This document shows, one piece after another, positions 39,946 through 58,640 of a stretch of 64,000 nucleotides of DNA (within the stretch, counting starts at the first letter, position 1; each line of letters begins with the position of its first letter). Both the position numbers and the translations under genes were made by a program. The stretch is from Nocardioides sp. cx-173 (lineage in GTDB: Bacteria > Actinomycetota > Actinomycetes > Propionibacteriales > Nocardioidaceae). The notes below the pieces were generated by a model, which saw only the letters and a list, made by a program, of their open reading frames with translations, ran no database searches and had not been told where the DNA came from. The stretch lies in the NCBI RefSeq assembly GCF_021117365.1, contig NZ_CP088262.1, positions 2,854,501-2,918,500 on the forward strand. The letters are read 5' to 3'.

Positions 39946-40848
39946 TTAGTCCTGCACGGCCTTGGCGATGGCCACGCAGGCGGTCAGCCAGGCGCGGTCA
40001 GGGGCCTCGGGTCGCTCCTCCAACGCCCACAGCACCTGGTGCAGCGTCCGTACGACGACCCAGTCGCGGGCGCGATCCTCGTCGAGCTCCGCGGCGTCGA
40101 CCGTGGCGTGGAAGCGGCGCCGCACTCCCTCGCGGACCCCGCCTGCGAGCTCGTCGAAGCGGTTCCACAGCAGGGGCGCCACCTCGTAGTGCGGGTCGCC
40201 GCTCACCGGCTTGGGGTCGATCACCAGCCACGGCTCGCGGTCGGCGGCGAGCACGTTGCCGTAGTGCAGGTCCCCGTGGATCACGGTGCCGTCGCTGGCG
40301 GGGTCCGCGACGAAGGCGCGACCGAGCGACACCGCCTGCCCCACCAGCCGGTGCGGCACCGGAGCGTCGCGGGGCAGGGTGGCGAGGCGCTCGGTCCAGC
40401 GACCGACGTACGACGTGAGGGTGCGCAGCTGCGGCGGCGCGGGGATGTGGAGCCGTCGGTAGAGGCCCCCGACCACCTCGCAGGCCTCGACGTCCCAGAC
40501 GTCGGTGAGGTCGCTGGGGTGCAACCGCTCCAGCAGCAGCGCGAAGCGGCGGGGGTCGGCCCGCAGCAGGCGGACCGCCCCCTCCCCGTGCCAGTGCTGG
40601 AGCACCAGCGCCTCGTGCTCGGCCTCCTCGTGGGGCCAGCCCACCTTGAGCACGGCCGGCGCTCCCGCGAACGTCCGCACCGGCAGCACGAGCGCGCACC
40701 GACCGTGAGCGGGCTCCCCGTCGGGTGACAGTGACCACTCGTCGAGGAGGTCGCCGACCAGACGCGGCAGCGCCTCGACAAAGCCGGCCCACGACGGGCT
40801 CAGCCGGGCCCGCGCGGCCAGGGCCGCGGGCACCTCCACCGTCACCAT
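39946..40848 (-). CDS. Aminoglycoside/hydroxyurea-kinase-family phosphotransferase
   Basis: The 300-residue protein belongs to the APH(6)/hydroxyurea kinase family: LKVGWPHEEAEHEALVLQHW (nucleotide-binding lobe), GTVIHGDLHYGNVLAADREP (HGDLHxxN catalytic loop) and LVIDPKPVSGDPHYEVAPLL (DPK metal site). Streptomycin kinases belong here, but many members are chromosomal with unknown substrates. The stop codon TAA is provided by the transposon target duplication; the pre-insertion sequence would also have read TAA. The gene is therefore intact. ATG 40848 is used. Confidence 0.85.
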   Translation of the reverse strand: MVTVEVPAALAARARLSPSWAGFVEALPRLVGDLLDEWSLSPDGEPAHGRCALVLPVRTFAGAPAVLKVGWPHEEAEHEALVLQHWHGEGAVRLLRADPRRFALLLERLHPSDLTDVWDVEACEVVGGLYRRLHIPAPPQLRTLTSYVGRWTERLATLPRDAPVPHRLVGQAVSLGRAFVADPASDGTVIHGDLHYGNVLAADREPWLVIDPKPVSGDPHYEVAPLLWNRFDELAGGVREGVRRRFHATVDAAELDEDRARDWVVVRTLHQVLWALEERPEAPDRAWLTACVAIAKAVQD

Positions 40849-41090
40849 GCTCCCGATCGTGCCATCCGGCCGGCCAGGGGCGAGGGCGGACACCCGTCCG
40901 CGATGTGGACGCAGCGCGTCGCCCGATGTGACAACGCGCGGGATGCCGCGTTGACTGGGTACTAGTCCGAATTGACTACGTGCTGTAGTCCGTTCGAGTC
41001 ACGCAAGCTCCTGATGCGGATCGGGGGGCCGGGGCCCATGCCCGCGGCCCGTCGGGGGTCTGCGGCTTGAGTCCTGGGGGGGATTCCACC
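40849..41090. other. Intergenic region before the polysaccharide cluster
   Basis: No gene is seen. Two TAGTCCG direct repeats (40963-40969 and 40986-40992, 23 bp apart) follow a GGGTACTA at about 40958. They could be part of the promoter of the initiating sugar transferase. A G-rich run just before GTG 41091 acts as its ribosome binding site. Confidence 0.3.
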
Positions 41091-42512
41091 GTGCCTGTAC
41101 GAACGATCGACCGACTGCCGTGGTTACGCAGCATGCGACCACTGCTCACTCTCGTCGACCCCGTGGCCGTCGCGCTCGCCGCGCTGGTCGCGCGCGAGCA
41201 TGTCAGTCCGATGGCGGTCGTGGCCGCCGCGGTCGCCGCCACCGTCGTCAGCCGGGCCGGTGACCTGCACCGCTCTCGGCTGGTGCTGTCGGTGCTGGAG
41301 GAGCTGCCACGGCTGGCACTGGCCAGTCTGGTCGCGACCGTCACCCTGCTGGCCGTGACGCCGCTCGGCGGGCTCGCAGGACGACCGGCCTGGGCGCCCA
41401 CGGCACTCTTCGCCGGCTGCGTGTTCGGCTTCCTCGTCCTGCTCCGAGGCGTCGTCTACACGGTGACGCACGTGGCCCGGCGCAGCGGGCGTACCGCCCA
41501 CCCGGTGATCATCGTGGGCGCCGGGGTGGTGGGACAGCGCCTGGCCGAGGCCTTCTTGTCGCGACGCGAGTACGGCCTGACCCCGGTCGGCATGATCGAC
41601 TGCGGACCCGACCTGCGGGCGCGGGACCTGCCGGTCCCGCTCCTGGGCGGGGTCGGCTCCCTCGGCCACGCGATGGCCGACCTCGGCGTGAACGACGTGG
41701 TCTTCGCCTTCCCGGGGCCGCCCGACGGGGAGACGGTCGATGCCGTGCGCCACGCCGTGCAGAGCGACCACCAGGTGTTCGTCGTCCCGCGCTTCTTCGA
41801 GATGATGGGCGTGGACCACCACCGCACAGAGCTGATCCGCGACGTCGCGGTCATGCGGCTGCGGCGCAGCGGGCGCCGAGCCCACACCCTGCTCCTCAAG
41901 CGGGCGCTCGACCTCACCGTCGCCTCCGTGGCGCTGGTGCTGCTGGCGCCCGCCATGGCCGTCCTCGCCCTCGCCGTCCGGCTCGAGACCGGGCCCGGGG
42001 TGATCTTCCGGCAGACCCGGATCGGCCTGCGCGGGCGCAGCTTCACGCTGTTCAAGTTCCGCTCCCTGCGCCCAGCGACGCACGAGGAGGCGGCCACCAC
42101 CTGGTCGATCGACCACGATGCGCGGCTCGGGCCCGTGGGCCGGTTCATCCGGCGTACCAGCCTGGACGAGCTGCCGCAGCTGGTCAACGTGTGGCGCGGT
42201 GACATGAGCCTGGTCGGCCCGCGGCCCGAGCGGCCCCACTTCGTGCGTGAGTTCTCCCGGTCGCAGGAGCGCTACGAGGACCGGCACCGGGTGCCCACCG
42301 GCATGACCGGGTGGGCCCAGGTCAACGACCTGCGCGGCGACACCTCGATCAGCGACCGGGTCCGCTTCGACAACTACTACATCGAGAACTGGTCGCTGTG
42401 GGGCGACATCAAGATCATCGTCCGCACCGTTCGCGCCGTCATTCGGCCTCAGTCGTCGCCGCCGAGGATGATCGCCCTCACCGCACCGGAGGAGCGGCAG
42501 CGAGCCGCATAG
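41091..42512 (+). CDS. Initiating undecaprenyl-phosphate sugar transferase
   Basis: The 473-residue polyprenyl-phosphate hexose-1-phosphate transferase has four or five N-terminal helices and a Rossmann-like CoA_binding_3 domain (VIIVGAGVVGQRLAEAFL). Its C-terminal bacterial sugar transferase domain has KRALDLTVASVALVLLAP, FKFRSLRP, SLDELPQLVNVWRGDMSLVG and PRPERPHFV. It transfers a sugar phosphate to the lipid carrier as the first step of exopolysaccharide assembly at the membrane. GTG 41091 has GGGGGGGA upstream. It is convergent with a GT4 gene, overlapping by 35 nt. Confidence 0.92.
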   Translation: MPVRTIDRLPWLRSMRPLLTLVDPVAVALAALVAREHVSPMAVVAAAVAATVVSRAGDLHRSRLVLSVLEELPRLALASLVATVTLLAVTPLGGLAGRPAWAPTALFAGCVFGFLVLLRGVVYTVTHVARRSGRTAHPVIIVGAGVVGQRLAEAFLSRREYGLTPVGMIDCGPDLRARDLPVPLLGGVGSLGHAMADLGVNDVVFAFPGPPDGETVDAVRHAVQSDHQVFVVPRFFEMMGVDHHRTELIRDVAVMRLRRSGRRAHTLLLKRALDLTVASVALVLLAPAMAVLALAVRLETGPGVIFRQTRIGLRGRSFTLFKFRSLRPATHEEAATTWSIDHDARLGPVGRFIRRTSLDELPQLVNVWRGDMSLVGPRPERPHFVREFSRSQERYEDRHRVPTGMTGWAQVNDLRGDTSISDRVRFDNYYIENWSLWGDIKIIVRTVRAVIRPQSSPPRMIALTAPEERQRAA

Positions 42513-43575
42513 TCACCTCGGCCACGGTCCGCGCGGAGGCGGCGGCGTCGTGGCGGGCCTCGACGTGGGCCCGGCCGGCGCGGCCCTCGGCGTCCGCGCG
42601 CTCCGGGTCCAGGAGCCGCGTCACCACCGCGTCGGCCAGCGCCAGCGGGCTCCCGGTCGCGACGACGGCGCCGGCCGCGCACGGGACGCTGTCGGCCACG
42701 CCGGTGACGTCGGTGGCCACGACGCTGCGGGCGCTCGCCATCGCCTCCAACGGGACCAGGGCCATGCCCTCCCAGCGCGAGGGCACCGCCACCACGTCCG
42801 CGGCGGCCAGCCAGAGCGGTACGTCGGCCCGGGCACCCACCAGGTCCACCCCGTCGCCGGGCTGGACCGAGTCCTCGAGGCGGCGCCGGTCCGGGCCGTC
42901 GCCGACCAGCACCAGCCGCGCGTCGGGGACCCGGGCGCGGACGGCGGACCAGGCCGCTAGCAGGTCCGCCTGGCCCTTCTGGGGCGCCAGGCGCCCCACG
43001 CACACCACGGTCGGCGCGTCGGGCAGGCGCAGGGCCGCCCGGGCGGCCGCTCGGGCCCGGGTGCCGCCGGCGCGGTGGCCGGCCAGGTCGACGCCGTTGG
43101 GCACCACGGTCGTCGGCGCGCTCACCCCGTGCGCGAGGCCGAGCCGGCGCTCGCTCTCGCTCACACAGACCAGCTCGCTCGTCCACCTGACGGCCTGCCG
43201 CTCCCACAGGAGCGAGGCCGTCCGCAGGGCGCCGGTGGCGGCCAGGAAGGACCAGGCGTGCGGCTGGAAGAGGGTCGGGCGCCGCCCGCGGACCGTGAGC
43301 CGGCCGGCGAGCCCGGCCTTCGCGCTGTGCAGGTGCACCGCGTGCGGGCGGTCGCGAGCCACCACCCGCGACAGCGTCGCGACCTCGCGCGCCAGGCCCG
43401 GCCCCGGAGCGCGAGCGGCGTACCAGGTCTCGACCCGCACGCCCAGCGCCGCCGCCTCCTCCCCCAGCCAGCCCGTGCCCGGACAGGCGAGGGTGACGTC
43501 CCAGCCCCGCTCCACCTGCTCGCGCAGGTAGCCGACGAGCACCCGCGCCACGCCCTCCGTCGTGGGCGCCGACAC
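42478..43575 (-). CDS. GT4 glycosyltransferase
   Basis: The 365-residue protein is a family 4 glycosyltransferase with a C-terminal GT-B nucleotide domain: VCVGRLAPQKGQADLLAAW, then WEGMALVPLEAMASARSVVA (the GT4 ExxxxxE motif). It adds a sugar in polysaccharide assembly. The first canonical start, GTG 43575, lies inside the expected first strand. The matching residues LRVLH just upstream would be included if translation begins at a CTG at 43605, which overlaps the TGA of the preceding gene (43602-43604). The true start is therefore uncertain. Coupling to the upstream gene is likely. Confidence 0.85.
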   Translation of the reverse strand: MSAPTTEGVARVLVGYLREQVERGWDVTLACPGTGWLGEEAAALGVRVETWYAARAPGPGLAREVATLSRVVARDRPHAVHLHSAKAGLAGRLTVRGRRPTLFQPHAWSFLAATGALRTASLLWERQAVRWTSELVCVSESERRLGLAHGVSAPTTVVPNGVDLAGHRAGGTRARAAARAALRLPDAPTVVCVGRLAPQKGQADLLAAWSAVRARVPDARLVLVGDGPDRRRLEDSVQPGDGVDLVGARADVPLWLAAADVVAVPSRWEGMALVPLEAMASARSVVATDVTGVADSVPCAAGAVVATGSPLALADAVVTRLLDPERADAEGRAGRAHVEARHDAAASARTVAEVTMRLAAAPPVR

Positions 43576-43601: not shown

Positions 43602-44870
43602 TCAGGCCGCGACCCGCTCGCCGCGACGGGTGACCAGGACGGTGCCCAGCAGGCGCACGCCCGCCGTGCGCACCCGACCCACGTGGGTGCGCAGCTGAGC
43701 GGTCGACACGCTGCCCTCGGGGACCGCGAGCAGCATCGAGCCGCCACGACCCATCACCCGGGCGTCGTCGCCCACGTCGAGGGGCGGCGCGAGCACGACG
43801 ACGACGTCGAAGCGGGCAGCCATCGCGTCCATGGCCTCGGAGAAGCGGGTCTCGACGAGGACGTCGGTGGGCTCACCGCCCCAGCTTCCGGAGGGCAGGA
43901 CGGTGAGGTTCTGGACGGGGCCGGGGCTGAGCGCGGAGTCGAGCTCGCCGCCGGTGAGGACCTCGTACAGGCCCGTGGTCTCGGGTCCGCCGACGATCGG
44001 CTTGCCGTGGCGCTCCCCCATCCGGCCGTCGACCATGAGGACCCGCCGTCCGGCGTTGGCGAGAGAGATCGCCAGATTCGCACCCAGCCACACGTTGACG
44101 TCGGCGGTCGTCACCCCGGTCACGACGATCCGGTGCACCGGCTCCGTGCTGGCCTCGGCCTCGAGGGCGATGCGCAGCTGCCGGAAGACGGCGGCGGCGC
44201 TCGTCCCGGGGTAGAGCGCCGGCAGGGTCGTGGGGTCGCGCGGCGCGGCGACCCGGGCGAGTACCGGGGCGGACGCGGCCGCCTCGACGCTCGGGACCCC
44301 GGTGACCGTCGTGGCACGCCGGTCGCGCACGAGCGCCGCGGAGACCGCCAGCACCAGCGCCAGCAGCGCACCGACCCCGATGCCGAGCAGCAGGTTCGGG
44401 CTCGAGTAGGTCAAGGGCACCTGCGCGGGGTTGCTGGTGGTGAAGAGGAACGCCCCGTTGCTCGGGTCGTGCAGCGGCAGGACCTCGGCCACGAGGTTCG
44501 CGATCCGGGCGGCGGTCTCGGGGTCCCCGTCCTCGACGGTGACCTGCACCAGGATCGTCCCCTCGACCCAGGCGCCGCTGATCTCGCGCCGGAGCTGGTC
44601 GAGCGTGCGGGGGGCGTCCAGCCGGGTCTGCACCTCCTCGAGCACCGCGCGCGAGTTGGCGACCTCACCGAGGGTGCCGCGCAGGTCGTCGAGGTCCTCG
44701 CTGCTGGTCGTGGTGTCCGGCGCAGCGGTGGCCGCCACCGTGGCCGTGGAGGTGTAGGACTTGGGCGCCACCATGAGCCCGGCCGTCACCGCCGCCGCCG
44801 TCGCCACGAGCACGAGGACCACGAGCACCTTCTGGCGCCACAGGGCGCCTGCCACGTCACGCAGCTCCAC
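43602..44870 (-). CDS. Wzz/BY-kinase-like chain-length protein with degenerate ATP site
   Basis: The 422-residue protein has two membrane helices (residues 13-35 and 158-181) flanking a periplasmic Wzz-type domain, and a C-terminal cytoplasmic domain of the bacterial tyrosine kinase fold. The Walker A motif is lost: residues 252-265 read GVTTADVNVWLGAN in place of GxxGxGKS/T. The Walker A' (VLMVDGRMG) Asp is kept, but the Walker B Asp is not (VVVVLAPPL). No C-terminal Tyr cluster is present. It is therefore likely a structural co-polymerase controlling chain length, without kinase activity. Confidence 0.82.
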   Translation of the reverse strand: MELRDVAGALWRQKVLVVLVLVATAAAVTAGLMVAPKSYTSTATVAATAAPDTTTSSEDLDDLRGTLGEVANSRAVLEEVQTRLDAPRTLDQLRREISGAWVEGTILVQVTVEDGDPETAARIANLVAEVLPLHDPSNGAFLFTTSNPAQVPLTYSSPNLLLGIGVGALLALVLAVSAALVRDRRATTVTGVPSVEAAASAPVLARVAAPRDPTTLPALYPGTSAAAVFRQLRIALEAEASTEPVHRIVVTGVTTADVNVWLGANLAISLANAGRRVLMVDGRMGERHGKPIVGGPETTGLYEVLTGGELDSALSPGPVQNLTVLPSGSWGGEPTDVLVETRFSEAMDAMAARFDVVVVLAPPLDVGDDARVMGRGGSMLLAVPEGSVSTAQLRTHVGRVRTAGVRLLGTVLVTRRGERVAA

Positions 44871-44967: not shown

Positions 44968-46062
44968 TCAGCCTACGTGACGAGACGGACGGCGGGTGCC
45001 GAACGTCAGATAGAGATCGCGGTACGCCGCCACCATCGCGGTCGACGTGAAGCGCCGCTCCCCGACGGCCCGTGCGGCGACCCGCATCGCGTCGCGCCGG
45101 GCCGGGTCGCGCAGCACCCTGGCCAGCCCGCCCGCCAGCTCGTCCGCCGATCCGGGGGCCACGAGCTCGACGGCGGCGGGGTCGAGGATGCGCAGGCCGC
45201 CCACGGCCGAGGCGACGACCGGCACGCCGGCCGAGAACGCCTCCAGCACGCTGACCGGCAGACCCTCGCGGTCGCTGGCGAGCACGAGGGCGTCGCTGGC
45301 GGCGAGCAGCTCGGCGACGTCGCGGCGGTCGCCGAGCAGCACGACGCGGTCGCCCAGACCGTCGGCCCGCACCCGGCGCTCGAGCGAGCCGCGCTCGGGG
45401 CCGTCGCCGGCCAGGAGGAGGAGGGCATCGCCGGGAAGCTCCGCCCACGCGTCGAGCAGCAGGTCGTGCCGCTTGGGCGGGGCCAGCCTGGCCAGGCACA
45501 GGACGACCTCGCGGTCCGGCGCGAGCCCCAGCCGGCGGCGGGCCGCCGCCCGATCCGCGGCCGGGAGGACGGGGGCGGCGTTCTCGACGACCCGCAGCCG
45601 GCTCTCGTCGAGCCCGGCCGCCCGCAGCCGGTCGAGCACGTCCGCCGAGACCGCCACCACGACGTCCGCGCAGCGGCGCAGCAGCCGGGCCGCCGGTGCG
45701 TAGTCGGCGTCGGCCAGGCCGTGCACGGTGCACACGAGGCGCGGCCGGGGGCGCAGCCCGGACGTGCCAAGGCTCGCGGCCAGCGCGGCACGCACGTTGT
45801 GCGCGTGCACGACGTCGACCGGCCGCCGGCGTACCTCCCGGCGAATCGTCAGCACCGCCCGGAGCAGCGACACCGGCGACGCGGACCGCAGCGGCACCTG
45901 CAGCGTCGCGATGCCGTCCTCGGCCAGCCGGTCGGCGCGCCAGCCGCCGTTGCTCGCGACCGTGACCAGGTCGCCTGCGACCGTGAGCTGCCGGGCGAGC
46001 GTGTCGACCATGGTCTCGGCCCCGCCCGAGCCGAGCTCGGCCACGACGATCAGCGTGCGCAT
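44968..46062 (-). CDS. GT4 glycosyltransferase
   Basis: The 364-residue GT-B glycosyltransferase starts MRTLIVVAELGSGGAETMVD, where the GGAE loop is typical of GT4. Its C-terminal domain has VVLCLARLAPPKRHDLLLDA and SDREGLPVSVLEAFSAGVPV with the paired Glu residues. ATG 46062 lies in a 13-nt overlap with the next GT4 gene upstream. It acts in the repeat-unit assembly of the surface polysaccharide. Donor and acceptor are not predictable. Confidence 0.88.
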   Translation of the reverse strand: MRTLIVVAELGSGGAETMVDTLARQLTVAGDLVTVASNGGWRADRLAEDGIATLQVPLRSASPVSLLRAVLTIRREVRRRPVDVVHAHNVRAALAASLGTSGLRPRPRLVCTVHGLADADYAPAARLLRRCADVVVAVSADVLDRLRAAGLDESRLRVVENAAPVLPAADRAAARRRLGLAPDREVVLCLARLAPPKRHDLLLDAWAELPGDALLLLAGDGPERGSLERRVRADGLGDRVVLLGDRRDVAELLAASDALVLASDREGLPVSVLEAFSAGVPVVASAVGGLRILDPAAVELVAPGSADELAGGLARVLRDPARRDAMRVAARAVGERRFTSTAMVAAYRDLYLTFGTRRPSRHVG

Positions 46063-47174
46063 GTCCGGGCCCTCGCGTAGCTCTCGAGCAGGCCGTCGAC
46101 GCAGTGGTCCAGCGTGTAGCCGTCGAGGACGCGCGACCGAGCCGCGGCGCCCATGCGGGCCCGGGCGCCGGGATCCCCGGCGAGCGCACTCAGCCCGGCG
46201 GCCAGCCCCGCCACGTCCCCGACCTCGCACAGCAGCCCGTCCACGCCGTCGCGCAGCACCTCCGGCACGCCGCCGACGGCCGTGGCCACGGCCGGCAGCC
46301 CGCACGCCATCGCCTGCAGCAGCGCGAGCGGGCAGTTCTCGGCCGCCGAGGTCAGCGCGAACAGGTCCGCGCGGGCGAGGACCGGAGCGGGGTCGGCCAC
46401 CCGCCCTAGCAGCGAGACCCGGTCGACGAGGCCCGCATCCGCGACCCGGCGCCGGACCTGAGGCAGCAGCGGCCCGTCACCGGCGACCAGGACCCGCAGG
46501 TCGGGGACCCGCTGCGCCGCGTCGAGCAGGACGTCGACCCGCTTGACCTCGGCCAGCACCCCGAGCCACAGCACCGTCGGCGGCCGGGGGCGGGTGGTCG
46601 TGGTCGTCGCAGGCGGTGCGAAGCGCAGCGGGTCCACACCGTTGGCCACCACGTCCACGCGCGTGGGGTCCAGCCGCACCTGGTCGACGGCGAAGCCGGC
46701 CACAGCGGCGCTCGGCACCACGACCCGGGCCCCGCTCCAGCGCGTCACCGCGCGCTCGCCGTGCAGGTAGTACCAGCTGTCCCGGCGTCGTCGGGGGGCG
46801 GCGAGGGCGTTGCCGGGCACCAGATCCGAGAGGCCGTCAGCCACGCCGTGCAGGGTGTAGACCAGCCCGGCACCGCCCAGGCCGCGCCCCACGAGGCGCC
46901 CCAGCCAGCCGGCCCGCCGGTCCTGCAGATGCACGATGTCGGGCCGCAGCGCCGCGAGCCGACGGGCGACACGGGCGCCGCCGGCGAGGTCCCGCTTGGT
47001 GGTCATCTCGAGCGGGTGGCAGGTGACCCCGGCGGCGCGGGCTCGCGCCGTCCCCGCGGACTCCGGACCGACCAGGTGGCTCTCGTGACCGCGCCCGGCC
47101 AGTGCGACGGCGACGTCGACGGCGTGGTCGACCGGTCCCCCGGTCGATTGGGTCAGCAGCTGGACGAGGCGCAT
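46050..47174 (-). CDS. GT4 glycosyltransferase
   Basis: The 374-residue GT-B glycosyltransferase begins MRLVQLLTQSTGGPVDHAVD and has a GT4 C-terminal domain: VLWLGVLAEVKRVDVLLDAA and SAAENCPLALLQAMACGLPAV. ATG 47174 lies 1 nt from the stop of the O-antigen ligase gene. It overlaps the next GT4 gene by 13 nt, indicating one transcript. The sequence is distinct from the adjacent GT4 gene, so each probably adds a different sugar. Confidence 0.88.
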   Translation of the reverse strand: MRLVQLLTQSTGGPVDHAVDVAVALAGRGHESHLVGPESAGTARARAAGVTCHPLEMTTKRDLAGGARVARRLAALRPDIVHLQDRRAGWLGRLVGRGLGGAGLVYTLHGVADGLSDLVPGNALAAPRRRRDSWYYLHGERAVTRWSGARVVVPSAAVAGFAVDQVRLDPTRVDVVANGVDPLRFAPPATTTTTRPRPPTVLWLGVLAEVKRVDVLLDAAQRVPDLRVLVAGDGPLLPQVRRRVADAGLVDRVSLLGRVADPAPVLARADLFALTSAAENCPLALLQAMACGLPAVATAVGGVPEVLRDGVDGLLCEVGDVAGLAAGLSALAGDPGARARMGAAARSRVLDGYTLDHCVDGLLESYARARTCAR

Positions 47175-47175
47175 G

Positions 47176-48480
47176 TCAGGCTCCTCGCCCACGGGCCGGT
47201 GCGAGGCCCGCGCCGAGCGCGGCGAGCAGCCACAGCGGCAGGAAGTACTGCTCGGTGACGAACGCCGCCGCAGCGGCCGTTCCGAGCAGCCCCACGCACA
47301 CCGCGGCCCCGAGCGTGTCGCCGGTACGCCCCCAGCGCGACCTCGCGCCGGCGTACGCCGCGACGAGGATCGCGAGGAACGCGGCGAGGCCAACGAGCCC
47401 GGTCTCGCTCGAGATCTCCAGGTAGGTGTTGTGGGCGACGCTGAGGTGGTGGTTGATGTCGCGCGGCAGGGAGTCGGCGTAGTCGCGGTGCTGCAGGCTG
47501 AACGAGCCCGGGCCGAGACCCAGCACGGGGCTCTCGAGCGTCATGGCGGAGGCCGACTGCCACAGGTCGAGGCGCTCGGAGATGTTCTGGCCGGCGACGT
47601 GGCCCTTCTGGTCCAGGCTGGTGTCCACCAGCTGCGGGAACGCGGCGAGCACGACCAGGAGCCCGGCCCCGAGCAGGGCCGCGAACCCGAGGGCCAGCCG
47701 CAGCCGCACGAGCCCCATCAGCAGTGCGGCGAGAAGCATCACCGCGACGCCCACCAGGGCACCGCGCGACAGGGTGCCCAGGAGCGCCAGGAGCACCAGC
47801 CCCGCGGCGAGGTCGTAGGTCCACGCGCGACGCGCGGTGCGGCGCAGCGCGAACGCCAGCGGGAGGGCCGCGAGCAGGAAGAAGGCGAGGTCGTTGGGGT
47901 CCTCGATCGGACCGCCCACCCGCCGGTCCGCGCCCAGGACGTAGACGAGCACGCCGCAGACGGAGGCGAGGGTGCAGGACACGACGTAGACCCGAGCCAC
48001 ACGGGCCGGCGCCAGGCCGCCGCGCATGCAGTCGGTGAGGACGGCGAGCACGGCGAGGAACCCGGCGTAGCGCAGCAGGATGTCGAGCCCGGTGCGCCCG
48101 TTGGCGTGCAGCACCGTCGCGGCGAGCAGCACGCCCACGAAGACCAGGGCGCAGACCAGCACGGGGCCGAGACCCGAGCTGTGCCGGAGACCCGCACAGC
48201 GCCGCAGCAGCCACGAGCACACCAGCACGGCCGCCAGCCCCTTCACGGCGCGGGGGTCGACGAGGGTCAGGTAGTCCTCGAACACGGCCGTGCCGACGAC
48301 CGCCAGTGCGGCCCAGTCGACGCGCAGCAGCAGGGTGACCACGACCCCGAGCAGCAGCAGCCCGACCAGCGCCTCGCGCGGCGCGAACCCGGCGGCCAGG
48401 CCCAGCACCACCGCAGCGATGAGTGCGGGGACGACCACCGGGCGGCCACGGCCCGTGGGGGGCGCGGCGAGGCTCACCAC
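47176..48480 (-). CDS. O-antigen ligase/polymerase-family membrane protein
   Basis: The 434-residue protein has 10-12 hydrophobic helices and a large outside loop with the GLGPGSFSLQHRDYADSLPR and HNTYLEISSETGLVGLAAFL segments diagnostic of the WaaL/Wzy family. It would polymerise or ligate polysaccharide repeat units on the outer face of the membrane. It starts at GTG 48480, overlapping the deacetylase gene end by 7 nt. In this cluster, which has a flippase and a Wzz protein, the Wzy role is most likely. Confidence 0.88.
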   Translation of the reverse strand: MVSLAAPPTGRGRPVVVPALIAAVVLGLAAGFAPREALVGLLLLGVVVTLLLRVDWAALAVVGTAVFEDYLTLVDPRAVKGLAAVLVCSWLLRRCAGLRHSSGLGPVLVCALVFVGVLLAATVLHANGRTGLDILLRYAGFLAVLAVLTDCMRGGLAPARVARVYVVSCTLASVCGVLVYVLGADRRVGGPIEDPNDLAFFLLAALPLAFALRRTARRAWTYDLAAGLVLLALLGTLSRGALVGVAVMLLAALLMGLVRLRLALGFAALLGAGLLVVLAAFPQLVDTSLDQKGHVAGQNISERLDLWQSASAMTLESPVLGLGPGSFSLQHRDYADSLPRDINHHLSVAHNTYLEISSETGLVGLAAFLAILVAAYAGARSRWGRTGDTLGAAVCVGLLGTAAAAAFVTEQYFLPLWLLAALGAGLAPARGRGA

Positions 48481-49289
48481 GGCGGCCGCCGGCGCCGCCA
48501 GCTGTCGAGCGGGCGCAGCGCCGTGTAGGCACCGTCCAGCATCGGGCGCAGGTCACGAGGGTCGTGCGGCACGAAGGAGCGACGCAGCGAGAGCAGCGGG
48601 GTCGCGGGCGGGTTCGCGCCCCGGTCCACCGTGACGCCGATCGTGTAGCCCGCCTCGCCGGCGGCCCGGCGTACGTCGGGGTCCCAGCCACCGGTGGGGT
48701 ACGCCACGGAGGTCACCCGGCGACCCAGCAGCTGCTCGAGCGCCTCCTTGGAGTCCACCAGCTCGCGCCGCTGCTCCCGCGGGCTCAGCCGCGGCAGCCA
48801 CGGGTGGCTGACGGTGTGCGAGCCGACGTCCAGGCCGTCCTCGGCGGCGGCCACCAGCGCCGCCGCGGTGACCCGTCGGTGCCCCTCGTGCTCGGGCCGG
48901 CCGAGGTCCCAAGCGAACCGGCGCTCGCCGGGCAGGTAGCCGGAGACCGCGAAGAGGGTGGCGGGCAGGCCCCGCTCGCGAAGCAGCGGCCAGGCGGTCT
49001 CCACGACGCTGGCGTAGCCGTCGTCGAACGTCAGCGCCACGGCCCGCTCCGGCAGCCTGCCGGAGCGCAGCCGGTCCACGGCGTCGTCCAGCGGCAGCAC
49101 GACCGCGCCCCAGGCAGCCAGCTCGTCGAGGTGCCGGCGGAACGCCGCCACCGGCGTGGCCAGCCCGTCGCCCGAGTCGTCGACCCGGTGCCAGCCCACC
49201 AGGCTGAGCGGCGGCGTACGGCGCAGCCGGTGGGTGGCGGCCGCCACCGGGTGGAGCACCGTGGCCAGCGCGCGGACCCCGGGCCTCAT
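48474..49289 (-). CDS. Polysaccharide deacetylase (CE4)
   Basis: The 271-residue CE4/NodB-domain protein has ALTFDDGYASVVETAWPLL (the catalytic TFDDG), the GSHTVSHPWL metal motif (HxxxH) and the SVAYPTGGWDP loop. It removes N- or O-acetyl groups from polysaccharide. There is no clear signal peptide; an N-terminal hydrophobic stretch (ALATVLHPVA) is short, so the location is uncertain. ATG 49289 overlaps the end of the flippase fusion gene by 4 nt. Confidence 0.88.
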   Translation of the reverse strand: MRPGVRALATVLHPVAAATHRLRRTPPLSLVGWHRVDDSGDGLATPVAAFRRHLDELAAWGAVVLPLDDAVDRLRSGRLPERAVALTFDDGYASVVETAWPLLRERGLPATLFAVSGYLPGERRFAWDLGRPEHEGHRRVTAAALVAAAEDGLDVGSHTVSHPWLPRLSPREQRRELVDSKEALEQLLGRRVTSVAYPTGGWDPDVRRAAGEAGYTIGVTVDRGANPPATPLLSLRRSFVPHDPRDLRPMLDGAYTALRPLDSWRRRRPPW

Positions 49290-52036
49290 GCCGGTCTCCG
49301 CAGGAGCCGGCCGGCCTCGCGCAGGTTGTCCCGGTCCAGGAGCCACACGGGCAGGGCGAACGCGAGCACGCCGATCGTCCCCACCACGAGCAGGTGGGTG
49401 AGGGACGGCTCGGCGACCGGGAACAGCCGGCGCACGGCCAGCACCACGGCGGTCATGGCGAGGACGCCGGTGGCGGCGGGCCGCAGCGACCACGCGAGCC
49501 CGCGCAGCGAGAAGCCGGTGACGAACACCCGGGCGAGCACCAGGGCGACCAGCGCCACCACGCTCGCCGCGAGGACCTGCCCGACGGCGACCGCGGTGAT
49601 GCCGTGGTCGACCACGGCCAGCACGATCGCGAGCAGGAGCAGCAGGTGCGTGAGGCGCAGGCACATCGAGACGGCGGGGCGTCCGGCGGCGTTGAGCGAG
49701 GTCTGCACGAGCTGGCCGACGCTCAGCAGGGCGGCGTACAGGGCGAGCCAGCCGACCACCGGCACGCCGTCGGCCCACTTGTCGCCGAGCAGCACGAGGT
49801 GGTCGGCGAAGACCGCGAGGCCCACGCACAGGGGCGCGATCAGCGTGAGGGTCACCGTCATCACCACGGTGGCCGACCGGCCGAGGTCCCGCCCACGCAT
49901 CCGGCACAGGTACGGGAACGCGGCACCGGTGATGACCACGACGATCATCAGGTACGGCATGAAGGCCAGCCGGAAGCCGAGGGAGTACTGCCCCAGGGCG
50001 ACCGCGCCGAGCACCCGGGCCACGACCAGGTAGTCGACGTTGAGCTGCACCAGCTCGAGCAGGTTGGCGCCGGCGTACGGCCCGCCGTACGACAGCAGGC
50101 CGCGCGCGTCCTCCCGGTCCCAGCCGGGCAGCACGGGCGGGTGCACCACCCAGGCCAGCACCAGGGTGAGCACGCCCTGGACGACCTGCCCGACGACCAG
50201 GGCCATGACGCCGCTGCCCTGCATCACCATGGCGATCGCCACGGTGGCGCCCACGACCGAGGAGACCGTGTCGGGGATGATCCGGCGCAGGAACTCCAGT
50301 CGCCGCCGGAGGAGCTCGTTGGTCACCGAGGCGACCGCGAGGAAGGGCAGCGTGACCGTCAGCCCCCGGATCACCGCTGCTCCCCCGTCCTCGGCACGCA
50401 ACGCGGAGGCCAGCCAGGGCGCGGACACCCACAGTGCGGCGGCGAGCACCGCGCCCAGCCCGGCTCCGATGGTCACCGCGGTGCGGGCAGCGCGCAGCAC
50501 GTCGCCGCGCCAGTAGACCAGCGCGCTGGCGGTGCCCAGGCTGGTGACCTGGAGCGAGAAGTTGGCGACGAGCGTGCCGAGCGCCACCAGGCCGAGGGCC
50601 GAGGGGGCGAGCAGCGCCGCCAGCGTCAGCAGCACGATCGTCTGGGCGCCCTTGACCACGATGCCGTTGGTCGCCAGCCAGAGCGCCCCGCGGGCGGTGC
50701 GCCCCGCCTGGTCCGCGGCGGGCGGAGCCGGCGGCGGGGGCGACGCCTCCAGTGCCTGCGTGACGGCGGAGAGGTGGCGGGCGAGCGTCTCCTCGCCCAG
50801 GTCGTGCAGGGAGCGGTTGCGCAGGTAGAGGACCACGGCCGCGAGAGCCAGGGAGCGCCGCATCGGTCGCTCCCAGTCCGACCAGCGGCGTCCCGCGACG
50901 AGGGTGTCGGCGACCGGCCCGACCTCGTCGACGAGCGACAGGATCTCCTCGGTCGGCAGCCGGCTCGGGTCGCCGGCGGCGCGCAGCGCCGGCATCAGCA
51001 GGCCGTCCATGCCCTGAGGGGCGTCGGGCGAGGCGTTGTCCCAGTCGATGACGACGCTGGTGTCACCGTCGACGAGCACGTTGCCGGGCCACAGGTCGCC
51101 GTGGCACCACGTGGTCGGGAGTCCGCCCTCGAGCGCACGCAGCTCGTCGGCCCACCGTCGCCGGTCGGCCGCCGGCACCACCTCCGCCGCCGCGCACCAT
51201 GCCTCGGCCCACCCGGGCCCGGTGGACCCGGTGATCCGGCCCGCCAGCACCGAGGCCACGTCGTCGGCGACCCGCCACTGCTGGTCGGGGCTCGGCCAGG
51301 GCCAGGACGGGGCCGCGCGTCGCCGCGGCCTCCACTCGGTGGCGCCCCACGGGCGCCCCCGCGTGCGCCCGCGTGCCAGGACCGGGGGCAGGTACGGCGC
51401 CAGGTCGGGGACGTCCTCGAGCACCCGAGCCGCCCGGTCGCCGTCGCGGTCGGGGTCGGTCAGCGAGAGCCGTACGGCCACGTCGCCGGCGTCGCCGCGG
51501 ACGCGGAGGACCGCGTGACCGGCGGTCGTGACCCCGACCAGGCGGCCGGGCTCGCCGGTCAGCTGCCCCAGATCCGCGACGACCTCCTCGGCCAGGCTCG
51601 GGAGACTGGGCCCGCTGAGCTGCAGTCGGGGCGCGGTGGCCGGGCGGCCCACGGCGAGGGCCACCCTGCGGCGCAGCCACGGGACCGGCCCGCTGGGGAC
51701 GTTGACCGGCCAGCCGCGCCGCCACAGCATCTCGGGGCTCTCGGCGCTCGGATGCACGACGTACTCGCCGTCCTCGCCCAGCGTCGCGAGCACCCCCTCG
51801 GGCGCCAGCAGCGGGCGGAGCGTCTCGACGTCATGGCTGCGCGCGTCGACGAGCACCAGCCCGGCCGATCCGGCCGGCGGCGCAGGCGCCCCGGTTGACC
51901 AGCCCGGCGGCAGGACCGTCGCCGCCGGGAACGCGGCGAGGAGGTGGGGAGCGAGGACGTCGGTGACGGCGAGGACCACCGGCCCGGGCGGGTCGGCCGG
52001 CAGCAGCACGGCGAAGCCCGCGAGCCGGTCTCCCAC
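49286..52036 (-). CDS. Kinase-like phosphotransferase fused to a Wzx/MOP flippase
   Basis: With a GTG start at 52036 this 916-residue protein is one unbroken frame. Residues ~160-430 form an APH-like kinase domain: TTWCHGDLWPGNVLVDGD near residue 312 (HGDxxxxN) and VVIDWDNASPDAP (Asp metal site). A Pro/Ala linker (~430-445) leads to a ~460-residue domain with about 12-14 helices of the oligosaccharide flippase (MOP/Wzx) type, starting ALWLATNGIVVKGAQTIVLL. The first ~150 residues resemble a degenerate Rossmann domain. The flippase would move lipid-linked repeats outward; the kinase's role is unknown. A start at 52156 is rejected since it would run into the divergent lipoprotein gene. Confidence 0.85.
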   Translation of the reverse strand: MGDRLAGFAVLLPADPPGPVVLAVTDVLAPHLLAAFPAATVLPPGWSTGAPAPPAGSAGLVLVDARSHDVETLRPLLAPEGVLATLGEDGEYVVHPSAESPEMLWRRGWPVNVPSGPVPWLRRRVALAVGRPATAPRLQLSGPSLPSLAEEVVADLGQLTGEPGRLVGVTTAGHAVLRVRGDAGDVAVRLSLTDPDRDGDRAARVLEDVPDLAPYLPPVLARGRTRGRPWGATEWRPRRRAAPSWPWPSPDQQWRVADDVASVLAGRITGSTGPGWAEAWCAAAEVVPAADRRRWADELRALEGGLPTTWCHGDLWPGNVLVDGDTSVVIDWDNASPDAPQGMDGLLMPALRAAGDPSRLPTEEILSLVDEVGPVADTLVAGRRWSDWERPMRRSLALAAVVLYLRNRSLHDLGEETLARHLSAVTQALEASPPPPAPPAADQAGRTARGALWLATNGIVVKGAQTIVLLTLAALLAPSALGLVALGTLVANFSLQVTSLGTASALVYWRGDVLRAARTAVTIGAGLGAVLAAALWVSAPWLASALRAEDGGAAVIRGLTVTLPFLAVASVTNELLRRRLEFLRRIIPDTVSSVVGATVAIAMVMQGSGVMALVVGQVVQGVLTLVLAWVVHPPVLPGWDREDARGLLSYGGPYAGANLLELVQLNVDYLVVARVLGAVALGQYSLGFRLAFMPYLMIVVVITGAAFPYLCRMRGRDLGRSATVVMTVTLTLIAPLCVGLAVFADHLVLLGDKWADGVPVVGWLALYAALLSVGQLVQTSLNAAGRPAVSMCLRLTHLLLLLAIVLAVVDHGITAVAVGQVLAASVVALVALVLARVFVTGFSLRGLAWSLRPAATGVLAMTAVVLAVRRLFPVAEPSLTHLLVVGTIGVLAFALPVWLLDRDNLREAGRLLRRPA

Positions 52037-52119
52037 GGTCCAGTGCGGCGCCGGGGCCGCGGCCCTTACAGTGGGCGCGCCGGGGGTGCCCCCGGCGGCG
52101 TACGGACTCAGGGGGGCCG

Positions 52120-52857
52120 ATGCACCGACGCTTCGCGATGCTGCTCGTCGCGTCACTGGGCGGTCTCCTGGTGCTCACGGGCTGTTCGGACCTGAGCGCC
52201 CAGCTCTCGGGCGAGCAGTCCTCCGAGCCGGTGAACGAGGCGGCCGCGCCGCCTCCCCCGCTCGTGACGGAGTCGTGGGGCACCGTCGACGGGCTGCTCT
52301 CGGTCCTCGTGCGCAACCCCTCCCGGCGGACCCTGCGCTACGCGGCGGCCACCGTCACGGCGCGTGACGCGAGCGGGGTGAGCGTCGCGTCGTCGAGGGG
52401 CGAGGCGGAGCCGCGCGACTGCTGCGTGGTCACCGACCTGCCCCCGGGCGCGACGTTCGGCCTGTACGTCGACGTCGGGACCGACGTCGAGTCGGTCCAG
52501 GACGTCGAGGTCGCCTTCCGCGACGTGGCGTGGCGGGCCCCCTCCCCCACGAAGCCGCCCCCGATGGAGGCGACGGCGATCCGCCTGGCCGCAGGGGCCA
52601 GCGGCGCAGTGGTCCTCGCCGACGTCGCGACCCCCGGTGGGGCCGTCGACGAGGCGGTCCTCCAGGCCCACCTCGTGGACGCCCACGGCGAGTTCCTCGC
52701 CGTGGTCTCCGGTCGCTGGGCCTGCTTCGCGGCAGGCGGAAGCCGCCGCATCGAGATGCAGCTCTTCCACCCCGTGCCCCCGGGGACCGAGGTCGCGTCG
52801 GTGCTCGCCTACCCCGTGCTCTCCCCGGCGCGGCCCGCACCGGGGTGTACCGGCTGA
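52120..52857 (+). CDS. Secreted lipoprotein of the polysaccharide cluster
   Basis: The 245-residue product has a lipoprotein signal (LLVLTGC). A Glu/Pro-rich linker and two beta-rich repeats follow, resembling FxLYD-like domains: SVLVRNPSRRTLRYAAATV and a second near GAVDEAVLQAHLVDA. CC pairs (RDCCVV) and later CFAAGG may form disulfides. It is divergent from the flippase fusion gene with ~84 nt between starts. It is likely surface-anchored; I do not recognise a specific role. Confidence 0.75.
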   Translation: MHRRFAMLLVASLGGLLVLTGCSDLSAQLSGEQSSEPVNEAAAPPPPLVTESWGTVDGLLSVLVRNPSRRTLRYAAATVTARDASGVSVASSRGEAEPRDCCVVTDLPPGATFGLYVDVGTDVESVQDVEVAFRDVAWRAPSPTKPPPMEATAIRLAAGASGAVVLADVATPGGAVDEAVLQAHLVDAHGEFLAVVSGRWACFAAGGSRRIEMQLFHPVPPGTEVASVLAYPVLSPARPAPGCTG

Positions 52858-57692: not shown

Positions 57693-58640
57693 ATGGCCGA
57701 CGTGATCCCGTCCCCGATCCCCCACGGCCGGACCGCCCGACGCCTCGAGTGGGCCCACCTGCCGCCTCACGCACGAGCCCTGGTGGAGCGGCGCTGCGGC
57801 TCCCCCGTCGTCGACGCCCGCTCGCAGGGGGCCGGCTTCACGCCGGGGTTCGCGTCGGTGCTGACCTGCGAGGACGGCTCGCGACACTTCGTCAAGGCCG
57901 CCTCGGCCAAGGCCCAGCGGATGTTCGCGCACTCCTACCGCGAGGAGGCGCGCAAGCTGGCCGCGCTGCCGCCGGCCACCCCTGCCCCGCGGCTGCTGTG
58001 GGTGCACGACGCCGACGACTGGGTCGTCCTCGGGCTGGAGCACGTCGAGGCCCGCAACCCGCGCCGGCCCTGGCGTGCCACCGACCTCCAGGCGGCGGTG
58101 GCGATGCTGGCGCGGACCGCCGAGGTCCTCACCCCGGCCCCGGGTCCGCTCTCGCACGAGCGTTTCGAGGTCGAGTTCGCGGAGTTCCCCGGCTTCTGGG
58201 ACCACGTCCGGACCACCCGTCCCGACCTGCCGCACCTGGAGGAGGCGGCCGCGCTCGCGGCCCGCTTCGCCGAGGTGACGGCCGGCGACACCCTGGTCCA
58301 CACCGACGTGCGCGACGACAACATCCTGGTGGGCCCGGACGGCTCGGCCGTGCTGTGCGACTGGAACTGGCCGGTCGTGGGCGCCGCCTGGCTCGACACC
58401 GTGTTCCTCATGATCGGCCCTCGCGGGGACGGCCTGGACGTCGACGCCGCCCTGGCCGCGGCCCCGCTGACCGCCGAGGTGCCCGCAGAGCACGTGGACA
58501 TCGTGCTGGCGCTGCTGGCGGCGTACTTCCTGCGGCAGGGCGACGAGCCGGTCCCGCCGTCCTCGCCGTACCTGCGCGAGGCACAGCGCTGGCAGGGCGA
58601 GGTCGTGTGGGAATGGCTGTGCGAGCGGCGCGGCTGGTGA
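57693..58640 (+). CDS. APH-family phosphotransferase
   Basis: The 315-residue protein is a kinase-like phosphotransferase: [20 protein letters not shown] (lysine lobe), [20 protein letters not shown] (catalytic loop HTDVRDDN) and [20 protein letters not shown] (DW metal site). It belongs to the broad aminoglycoside/choline kinase superfamily, substrate unknown. It is divergent from lepA with 59 nt between starts. It lies in the lepA-rpsT interval where actinobacteria often have variable genes. Confidence 0.82.

What the first reader, a model, noticed from the sequence alone, without database searches (positions are those of the whole stretch)
49286..52036. APH-type kinase domain fused to a Wzx/MOP flippase
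One uninterrupted frame encodes a phosphotransferase with HGDLWPGN and DWDN motifs, a Pro/Ala linker, then a full-length multi-helix flippase. Polysaccharide clusters often carry separate kinase-like and flippase genes, but a fusion suggests that sugar or lipid-carrier phosphorylation is physically linked to export. The first ~150 residues look like a degenerate Rossmann domain, making it possibly a three-part protein.
Basis: partly seen in the sequence, partly recalled or inferred. Interest (0 to 1): 0.75.

Follow-up and report, generated by a model that had tools for sequence, protein, structure and literature searches.

The report
Kinase fused to sugar-lipid flippase
In a group of soil bacteria, a kinase with an intact active-site signature is built into the same protein as the membrane flippase that carries sugar-lipid building blocks out of the cell; the fusion is real, seems old and repeatedly lost, which makes it directly testable whether these bacteria phosphorylate their sugars just before export.

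Summary
Confirmed and extended. The frame is on the minus strand (49286-52156, about 956 aa). It encodes an orphan N-terminal domain resembling a degenerate class I methyltransferase, an APH-fold kinase with the HGD/N/D signature, a Pro/Ala linker and a MOP (Wzx-type) flippase with 14 hydrophobic segments, inside a Wzx/Wzy-type polysaccharide cluster. It is not an assembly error: 104 further database proteins carry all three parts. I found no free copy of the kinase half. Catalytic residues are kept in 106 of 112 rows with letters there. On a tree of flippase halves the fusion looks old (named members mostly Nocardioides; also MAGs named Frankiaceae, Acidothermaceae, Jatrophihabitantaceae); it needs ten changes, best read as mostly losses, and one clade carries a C-terminal Wzy-type domain instead. 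One loss is recent and in frame (Nocardioides sp. IC4_145 against N. deserti; flippase dN/dS 0.19), so the module looks optional. Most likely it phosphorylates the lipid-linked repeat unit on the cytoplasmic face before flipping (inferred, about 0.4). A regulatory role, as for the mycobacterial MviN pseudokinase domain, is the main rival. No substrate was tested. My paper searches listed no description of the fusion.

The parts
52037..52156 (-). Variable leader of the fusion protein if the GTG at 52156 is the start; ends in HWT before GDRL
51602..52036 (-). N-terminal domain, residues 1-145 of P0001: orphan alpha/beta domain, resembles a degenerate class I methyltransferase without the glycine-rich SAM motif
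   Evidence: model confidence 81-98 per block of ten residues; no Pfam match in 13 of 13; hhalign to 27 own-genome methyltransferases 77.7% against at most 15.4% for 40 column shuffles
50753..51601 (-). APH-fold kinase domain, residues 146-428
51035..51103 (-). Catalytic signature HGDLWPGN (312-319) ... DWDN (331-334)
   Evidence: H312, G313, D314, W316, N319, D331, W332, N334 at least 97% conserved among 88 rows; H, G, D, N, D kept in 106 of 112 rows
50693..50752 (-). Pro/Ala-rich linker, residues 429-448
   Evidence: translation; poorly conserved block between kinase and flippase
49286..50692 (-). MOP-superfamily (Wzx/TuaB-like) flippase, residues 449-916 plus stop; 14 hydrophobic segments, N-terminus cytoplasmic by the positive-inside rule
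48474..49289 (-). Polysaccharide deacetylase, start overlaps the fusion's stop by ATGA
47176..48480 (-). Wzy_C / O-antigen ligase-like protein (polymerase or ligase)
46050..47267 (-). GT4 glycosyltransferase (start not settled)
44968..46086 (-). GT4 glycosyltransferase (start not settled)
43602..44870 (-). Wzz chain-length protein with tyrosine-autokinase-like C-terminal part (that part below NCBIfam cut-offs)
42478..43575 (-). GT4 glycosyltransferase
41067..42512 (+). Initiating phosphoglycosyl transferase (TIGR03025 family, above cut-off)

Best explanation
The protein is a tailoring kinase tethered to its exporter. SHOWN: one reading frame with a first domain that resembles a degenerate methyltransferase, an APH-fold kinase with intact catalytic signature, and a MOP flippase, in a Wzx/Wzy-type cluster. 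INFERRED: the two soluble domains sit on the cytoplasmic face; the methyltransferase-like domain has lost SAM catalysis and helps hold substrate or the complex; the kinase uses ATP to phosphorylate a hydroxyl of the undecaprenyl-diphosphate-linked repeat unit (or of a group on it) just before the attached flippase takes it outward. The phosphate is an optional decoration: the flippase works without the module, which is why lineages can drop it.
For: All three parts in 104 further database proteins. H, G, D, N, D kept in 106 of 112 rows. High-confidence kinase model whose 50 listed matches include FN3K, APH, choline kinases and LicA; such kinases mostly phosphorylate hydroxyls (or, for FN3K, a sugar adduct) of small molecules (recalled). 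dN/dS 0.18-0.44 for the kinase and 0.24-0.29 for the first domain in the pairs that could be measured. Flippase N-terminus cytoplasmic: 25 K/R in inner against 3 in outer loops (simple hydropathy). The cluster holds an initiating transferase, three GT4s, a deacetylase, a Wzy-like and a Wzz protein, and close relatives largely keep this order. Precedents: WbdD, a methyltransferase-then-kinase enzyme that phosphorylates a polyprenol-linked glycan (PMC3482155, abstract and sections 5 and 7 read); TacF, a MOP flippase that checks phosphocholine through its phosphate (PMC13385700, abstract and passages read).
Against: No substrate or activity is known. The module seems lost repeatedly with little change in conserved flippase columns (94% mean retention over 103 columns in 19 unfused rows), so flipping does not seem to need the phosphate. 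Four proteins of one clade (P0119-P0122) keep the module but have D331 changed to G, P0123 has lost the signature, and P0065 has N319 changed to S: there the module may act without phosphotransfer. The kinase evolves faster than the flippase in the pairs measured. The methyltransferase likeness is suggestive only (77.7% with all 27 sequences, 24-59% with half sets), and a model of that domain alone could not be run.
Confidence: 0.4

Rival explanations
1. Regulatory module: the kinase domain senses nucleotide or a partner, or phosphorylates a protein (the flippase, Wzz or Wzy), and so sets the rate of flipping. It would work like the pseudokinase domain of the mycobacterial protein MviN (a MOP-family flippase, recalled), but through an APH-type domain at the other end of the chain.
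For: [quoted passage not shown] Optional presence and the D331G clade that keeps the module fit.
Against: Catalytic residues are kept in 106 of 112 rows, unlike MviN. APH-fold kinases mostly act on small molecules (recalled; the named entries are of that kind).
Confidence: 0.27
2. Lipid-carrier kinase: the domain phosphorylates undecaprenol to undecaprenyl phosphate beside the flippase, topping up the carrier.
Against: Patchy: 11 strong matches of the module in 245 genomes of the family, and lost in close kin, which a needed carrier kinase should not be. Whether those other genomes have DgkA was not tested. No lipid-binding feature was tested.
Confidence: 0.12
3. Small-molecule kinase: the domain phosphorylates a free precursor (choline, an amino alcohol or a monosaccharide) for later attachment, and is merely tethered at the membrane.
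Against: The LicD match is about 336 kb from the window's end, not in the cluster; its best stretch covers 31 of 227 positions (38.6 bits with its frame neighbours). No LicD family was listed for the 14 window proteins given to Pfam. A free precursor gives no clear reason for fusion to the flippase.
Confidence: 0.12
4. Artefact: a sequencing or assembly error joins two genes.
For: None found.
Against: Same three-part protein in 104 further database proteins and the fusion in 12 of 19 named loci; single-contig genome; dN/dS below 0.45 across the domains in the pairs measured.
Confidence: 0.01

Closest known systems
WbdD of E. coli O9a (O-antigen chain terminator)
   Same: Methyltransferase domain directly followed by a kinase domain; kinase phosphorylates a polyprenol-linked glycan (PMC3482155, abstract and sections 5 and 7).
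   Different: WbdD serves an ABC-transporter pathway, has a C-terminal coiled coil and no flippase, an active methyltransferase domain, and a kinase domain described as eukaryote-like. No sequence kinship was tested.
Mycobacterial MviN with ActPs3 pseudokinase domain
   Same: A membrane protein of Actinomycetota (MOP/MurJ family, recalled) carrying a kinase-like domain not required for synthesis (PMC12599244, passages).
   Different: There the domain follows the membrane part (recalled; residues 710-942), is Ser/Thr-kinase-like and deficient in ATP and magnesium binding; here it is N-terminal, APH-type with intact catalytic signature, on a Wzx/TuaB-like flippase.
TacF / LicA of Streptococcus pneumoniae
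   Same: A MOP flippase whose cargo carries a phospho-decoration made with the help of a choline kinase (PMC13385700, abstract and passages); LicA is among our structural matches.
   Different: Separate proteins; TacF prevents transport of unmodified cargo, whereas here close relatives lack the module altogether.
APH / fructosamine kinase / choline kinase family (PF01636 and kin)
   Same: Kinase fold and HGDxxxxN...D signature.
   Different: Low sequence identity (8-20% in the 50 rows), fused to a methyltransferase-like domain and a flippase; substrate unknown.
TuaB / Wzx-type MOP flippases
   Same: Flippase half matches the PRK10459 and TuaB models over nearly full length.
   Different: Below the equivalog cut-offs (146 against 273; 99.7 against 580 bits) and carrying a 430-residue N-terminal extension.

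Membership tests
APH-fold kinase (PF01636) | Profile match above the curated cut-off | tested here: met
   46.5 bits against 23.2; 13 of 13 members of A5 match at the threshold used
APH-fold kinase (PF01636) | Catalytic HGDxxxxN and metal-binding D | tested here: met
   Present here; kept in 106 of 112 rows with letters
APH-fold kinase (PF01636) | Kinase fold | tested here: met
APH-fold kinase (PF01636) | ATP-dependent phosphotransfer | not testable with these tools
   Needs an assay
MOP flippase (Polysacc_synt) | Profile match above cut-off | tested here: met
   PF13440 157 bits, PF01943 66 bits
MOP flippase (Polysacc_synt) | 12-14 transmembrane helices, N-terminus inside (feature recalled) | tested here: met
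   14 hydropathy peaks, K/R 25 inside against 3 outside (simple hydropathy)
MOP flippase (Polysacc_synt) | Flips lipid-linked oligosaccharide | not testable with these tools
   Inferred from family and cluster
TuaB equivalog (NF047674) | Score above the curated cut-off | tested here: not met
   99.7 against 580 bits; some records name relatives tuaB
WbdD-like kinase/methyltransferase | SAM-binding methyltransferase domain | tested here: not met
   Resembles one but a G.G.G pattern occurs in the first 70 residues in only 2 of 106 members, not shown to be the SAM motif
WbdD-like kinase/methyltransferase | Kinase phosphorylates a lipid-linked glycan end | not testable with these tools
   Needs an assay
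MviN-type pseudokinase fusion | Kinase-like domain with lost catalytic residues | tested here: not met
   Catalytic residues intact here
MviN-type pseudokinase fusion | Binds a regulator such as FhaA | not tested
   -

The most novel reading that the evidence does not exclude
A 'tailor-then-flip' enzyme: a membrane-tethered glycan kinase whose active site hands each phosphorylated, lipid-linked repeat unit to the flippase in the same chain, with a dead methyltransferase domain as substrate holder. It would be an enzymatic decoration step built into a Wzx flippase, repeatedly switched off in nature by in-frame loss of the module.
Probability: 0.38. Interest if true: 0.78.

Novelty: new variant of a known kind. 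Interest (0 to 1): 0.6.

Why it matters
How Wzx-type flippases recognise cargo, and how glycan decoration is timed against export, is largely open (general knowledge). Here nature supplies matched strains: the same cluster, with flippases about 96% identical in DNA, with the kinase module (N. deserti SC8A-24) and without it (Nocardioides sp. IC4_145). Comparing their glycans would help tell whether the kinase decorates the exported sugar. The Wzy-flippase fusions found on the same tree suggest that this flippase family is a platform to which successive pathway enzymes get tethered.

Tried and rejected
Free-standing kinase: a database search with the N-terminal half gave 6 proteins. P0103, P0104 and P0097 look like frame-shifted pieces of the fusion, P0068 and P0074 are truncated fusions, P0105 a generic APH protein matched over 7% of the query; none is a free relative. 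Genome searches: 296 Actinomycetota genomes, own plus one weak generic match, G208; 245 genomes of the family, 11 strong matches, all with the flippase in the same frame, plus one weak generic match, G541. These searches scored only 5-7 of the first-look candidates per genome. In 96 relatives the kinase part matched elsewhere only weakly (E 4e-6 to 9e-4), over 34-157 residues, in genomes of other families.

Assembly error and dead frame: rejected (see rivals). Long open frames alone are no evidence in this GC-rich DNA: L081 and L082 show 973-aa frames whose first part does not look coding (by eye).

Sequence search of the first domain in the PDB gave only chance-level matches. No methyltransferase is among the 50 entries shown; one domain can fill that list, so this excludes nothing. 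Flippase sites that change when the module is lost: the least kept of 103 conserved columns are still kept in 61-68% of 19 unfused rows (M861, Y650, F688, R510 and others), which I could not interpret. Full-length and first-domain models could not be run: the machine was busy.

Caveats on the trees: quick method, SH-aLRT only, long branches flagged (P0135, L007, P0106, P0134 and others). For the second tree I left out 18 closely related fused rows, locus duplicates, the contig-edge locus L058, the remote loci L080-L082 and P0097-P0105; some duplicates remained (135 different of 140 rows). I labelled L054-L056 Wzy-fused: L054 and L055 join rows with a Wzy match in frame, L056 by frame length and position on the tree. 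Genomes behind G handles and named genomes overlap, so their counts are not independent. Protein searches scored only the 8000 candidates sharing most words. Alignment A3 had three loci on the wrong strand and was replaced by A4.
Full report
WHAT IS THERE. The given interval holds one minus-strand frame that ends at 49286 and is open back to a GTG at 52156 (956 aa). The finding's end (52036) is a later in-frame GTG. Most relatives listed carry a variable leader, often ending in HWT, before GDRL, so the upstream start is likelier, though the closest relative P0002 is recorded without a leader. Pfam finds APH (46.5 bits, cut-off 23.2) and Polysacc_synt_3 (157 bits, cut-off 23) in the same protein. 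The genome is a single 4.45 Mb contig with one match.

THE CLUSTER. Downstream on the same strand follow a polysaccharide deacetylase whose start overlaps the fusion's stop (ATGA), a Wzy_C protein, three GT4 glycosyltransferases and a Wzz/tyrosine-kinase-like protein; an initiating phosphoglycosyl transferase lies beyond on the other strand. Of 19 named loci, 12 are fused, 6 have no kinase in the fetched locus (up to 10 kb either side), and 1 is cut at a contig edge. Fused loci and three of the unfused ones (L048, L052, L053) largely share the gene order, though L053 shows no deacetylase match; the other three unfused (L054-L056) are arranged differently and belong to the Wzy-fused clade.

HISTORY. 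The full-length search found 101 proteins. Of 87 with at least 780 aa among P0002-P0092, 86 carry the profiles of all three parts and P0055 lacks the first. Because that search's words came from the first 500 residues, I searched again with the flippase half: 126 proteins, 120 listed. Of 34 proteins then scanned (P0106-P0135 and P0099-P0102), 20 carry the kinase profile, including MAGs named Acidothermaceae, Frankiaceae, Jatrophihabitantaceae and Marmoricola. Over all 135 protein ids held, window's included, 105 have all three parts, 112 kinase plus flippase, 21 flippase without kinase, and 2 kinase without flippase (P0103, a frame-shifted piece, and P0105, a generic APH protein). In 147 genomes of the genus, 27 flippase loci were found: 9 fused, 1 at a contig edge with a kinase fragment, 9 unfused, 5 with a Wzy-type domain in the same frame, and 3 remote flippases without the kinase. 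On a tree of 140 flippase rows (106 fused, 21 unfused, 13 Wzy-fused) the fused state needs 10 changes, 8 of them forced by well supported branches; the Wzy-fused rows form one clade (support 100) nested among kinase-fused rows. The simplest reading is an old fusion with repeated losses and one replacement; the root state itself is uncertain.

A RECENT LOSS. N. deserti (L050, containing L090) and Nocardioides sp. IC4_145 (L048) are 91% identical up to the MTRPV leader and 95.8% identical from the linker onward; between these points 1,344 bases in N. deserti face 59 in IC4_145, with short stretches resembling the module. The leader and flippase lie in one frame in both. Flippase dN/dS between the two is 0.19. 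In fused pairs dN/dS is 0.24-0.29 (first domain; the two pairs with L050 gave no value for it), 0.18-0.44 (kinase) and 0.07-0.25 (flippase). In 103 flippase columns conserved among 110 fused rows, 19 unfused rows keep the same residue at 94% on average. So the module is maintained where present yet looks dispensable to the transporter.

HOW IT MOST LIKELY WORKS. Shown: architecture, conservation, patchy presence. Inferred: cytoplasmic phosphorylation of the lipid-linked repeat unit (or a group on it) before flipping. WbdD shows that a methyltransferase-kinase enzyme can phosphorylate a polyprenol-linked glycan (PMC3482155: abstract, sections 5 and 7 read). TacF shows that a MOP flippase can read a phosphate on its cargo (PMC13385700: abstract and passages read). 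The main rival is regulation: MviN of M. [quoted passage not shown] The absence of a DgkA-type undecaprenol kinase match in this genome leaves a lipid-carrier kinase possible but, given the patchy distribution, less likely.

NOVELTY. Paper searches listed no description of a Wzx-type flippase fused to an APH kinase. I saw listings and openings of abstracts, and passages of PMC12419801, which mention gene neighbourhoods or fusions of VanZ-family domains with diverse genes of these pathways, flippases chief among them. Most subscription papers are not in that library. Databases already hold the proteins, some named 'oligosaccharide flippase family protein'. I rate it a new variant of a known kind: kinase-like domains on MOP proteins are known, but not this order, kinase type or intact signature as far as I could see.

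Noticed in passing
L035:8226-10967 (minus strand), P0128-P0133, L073, L075-L078: A second fusion in the same flippase family: the flippase carries a Wzy_C/O-antigen-ligase domain at its C-terminus (P0132: PF13440 and PF04932 both above cut-off). These rows form one clade nested among kinase-fused flippases.
   Followed up: partly
P0119-P0122: A clade including a Jatrophihabitantaceae MAG (P0120) keeps the kinase module but has the metal-binding Asp changed to Gly, so it may be a pseudokinase.
   Followed up: no
P0077, P0080: Flippase-only metagenome proteins nested with the window's own close kin; their leaders (MARGA...) resemble those of fused relatives P0004 and P0005, pointing to further in-frame losses of the module.
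   Followed up: partly
window 39946-40893 (-) and 57693-58640 (+): A kinase of the aminoglycoside/hydroxyurea type (PF04655) at 39946-40893, and a protein with an HTDxxxxN motif and no Pfam match at 57693-58640, lie near the cluster and lepA; matches to both are found in many of the related loci.
   Followed up: no
window 52120-52857 (+): A putative lipoprotein gene without Pfam match runs divergently and overlaps the fusion's possible leader by 37 bases; its strand relative to the fusion varies among relatives.
   Followed up: no
P0135: A 984-aa protein with two matched stretches of the flippase profile, so perhaps a tandem flippase.
   Followed up: no
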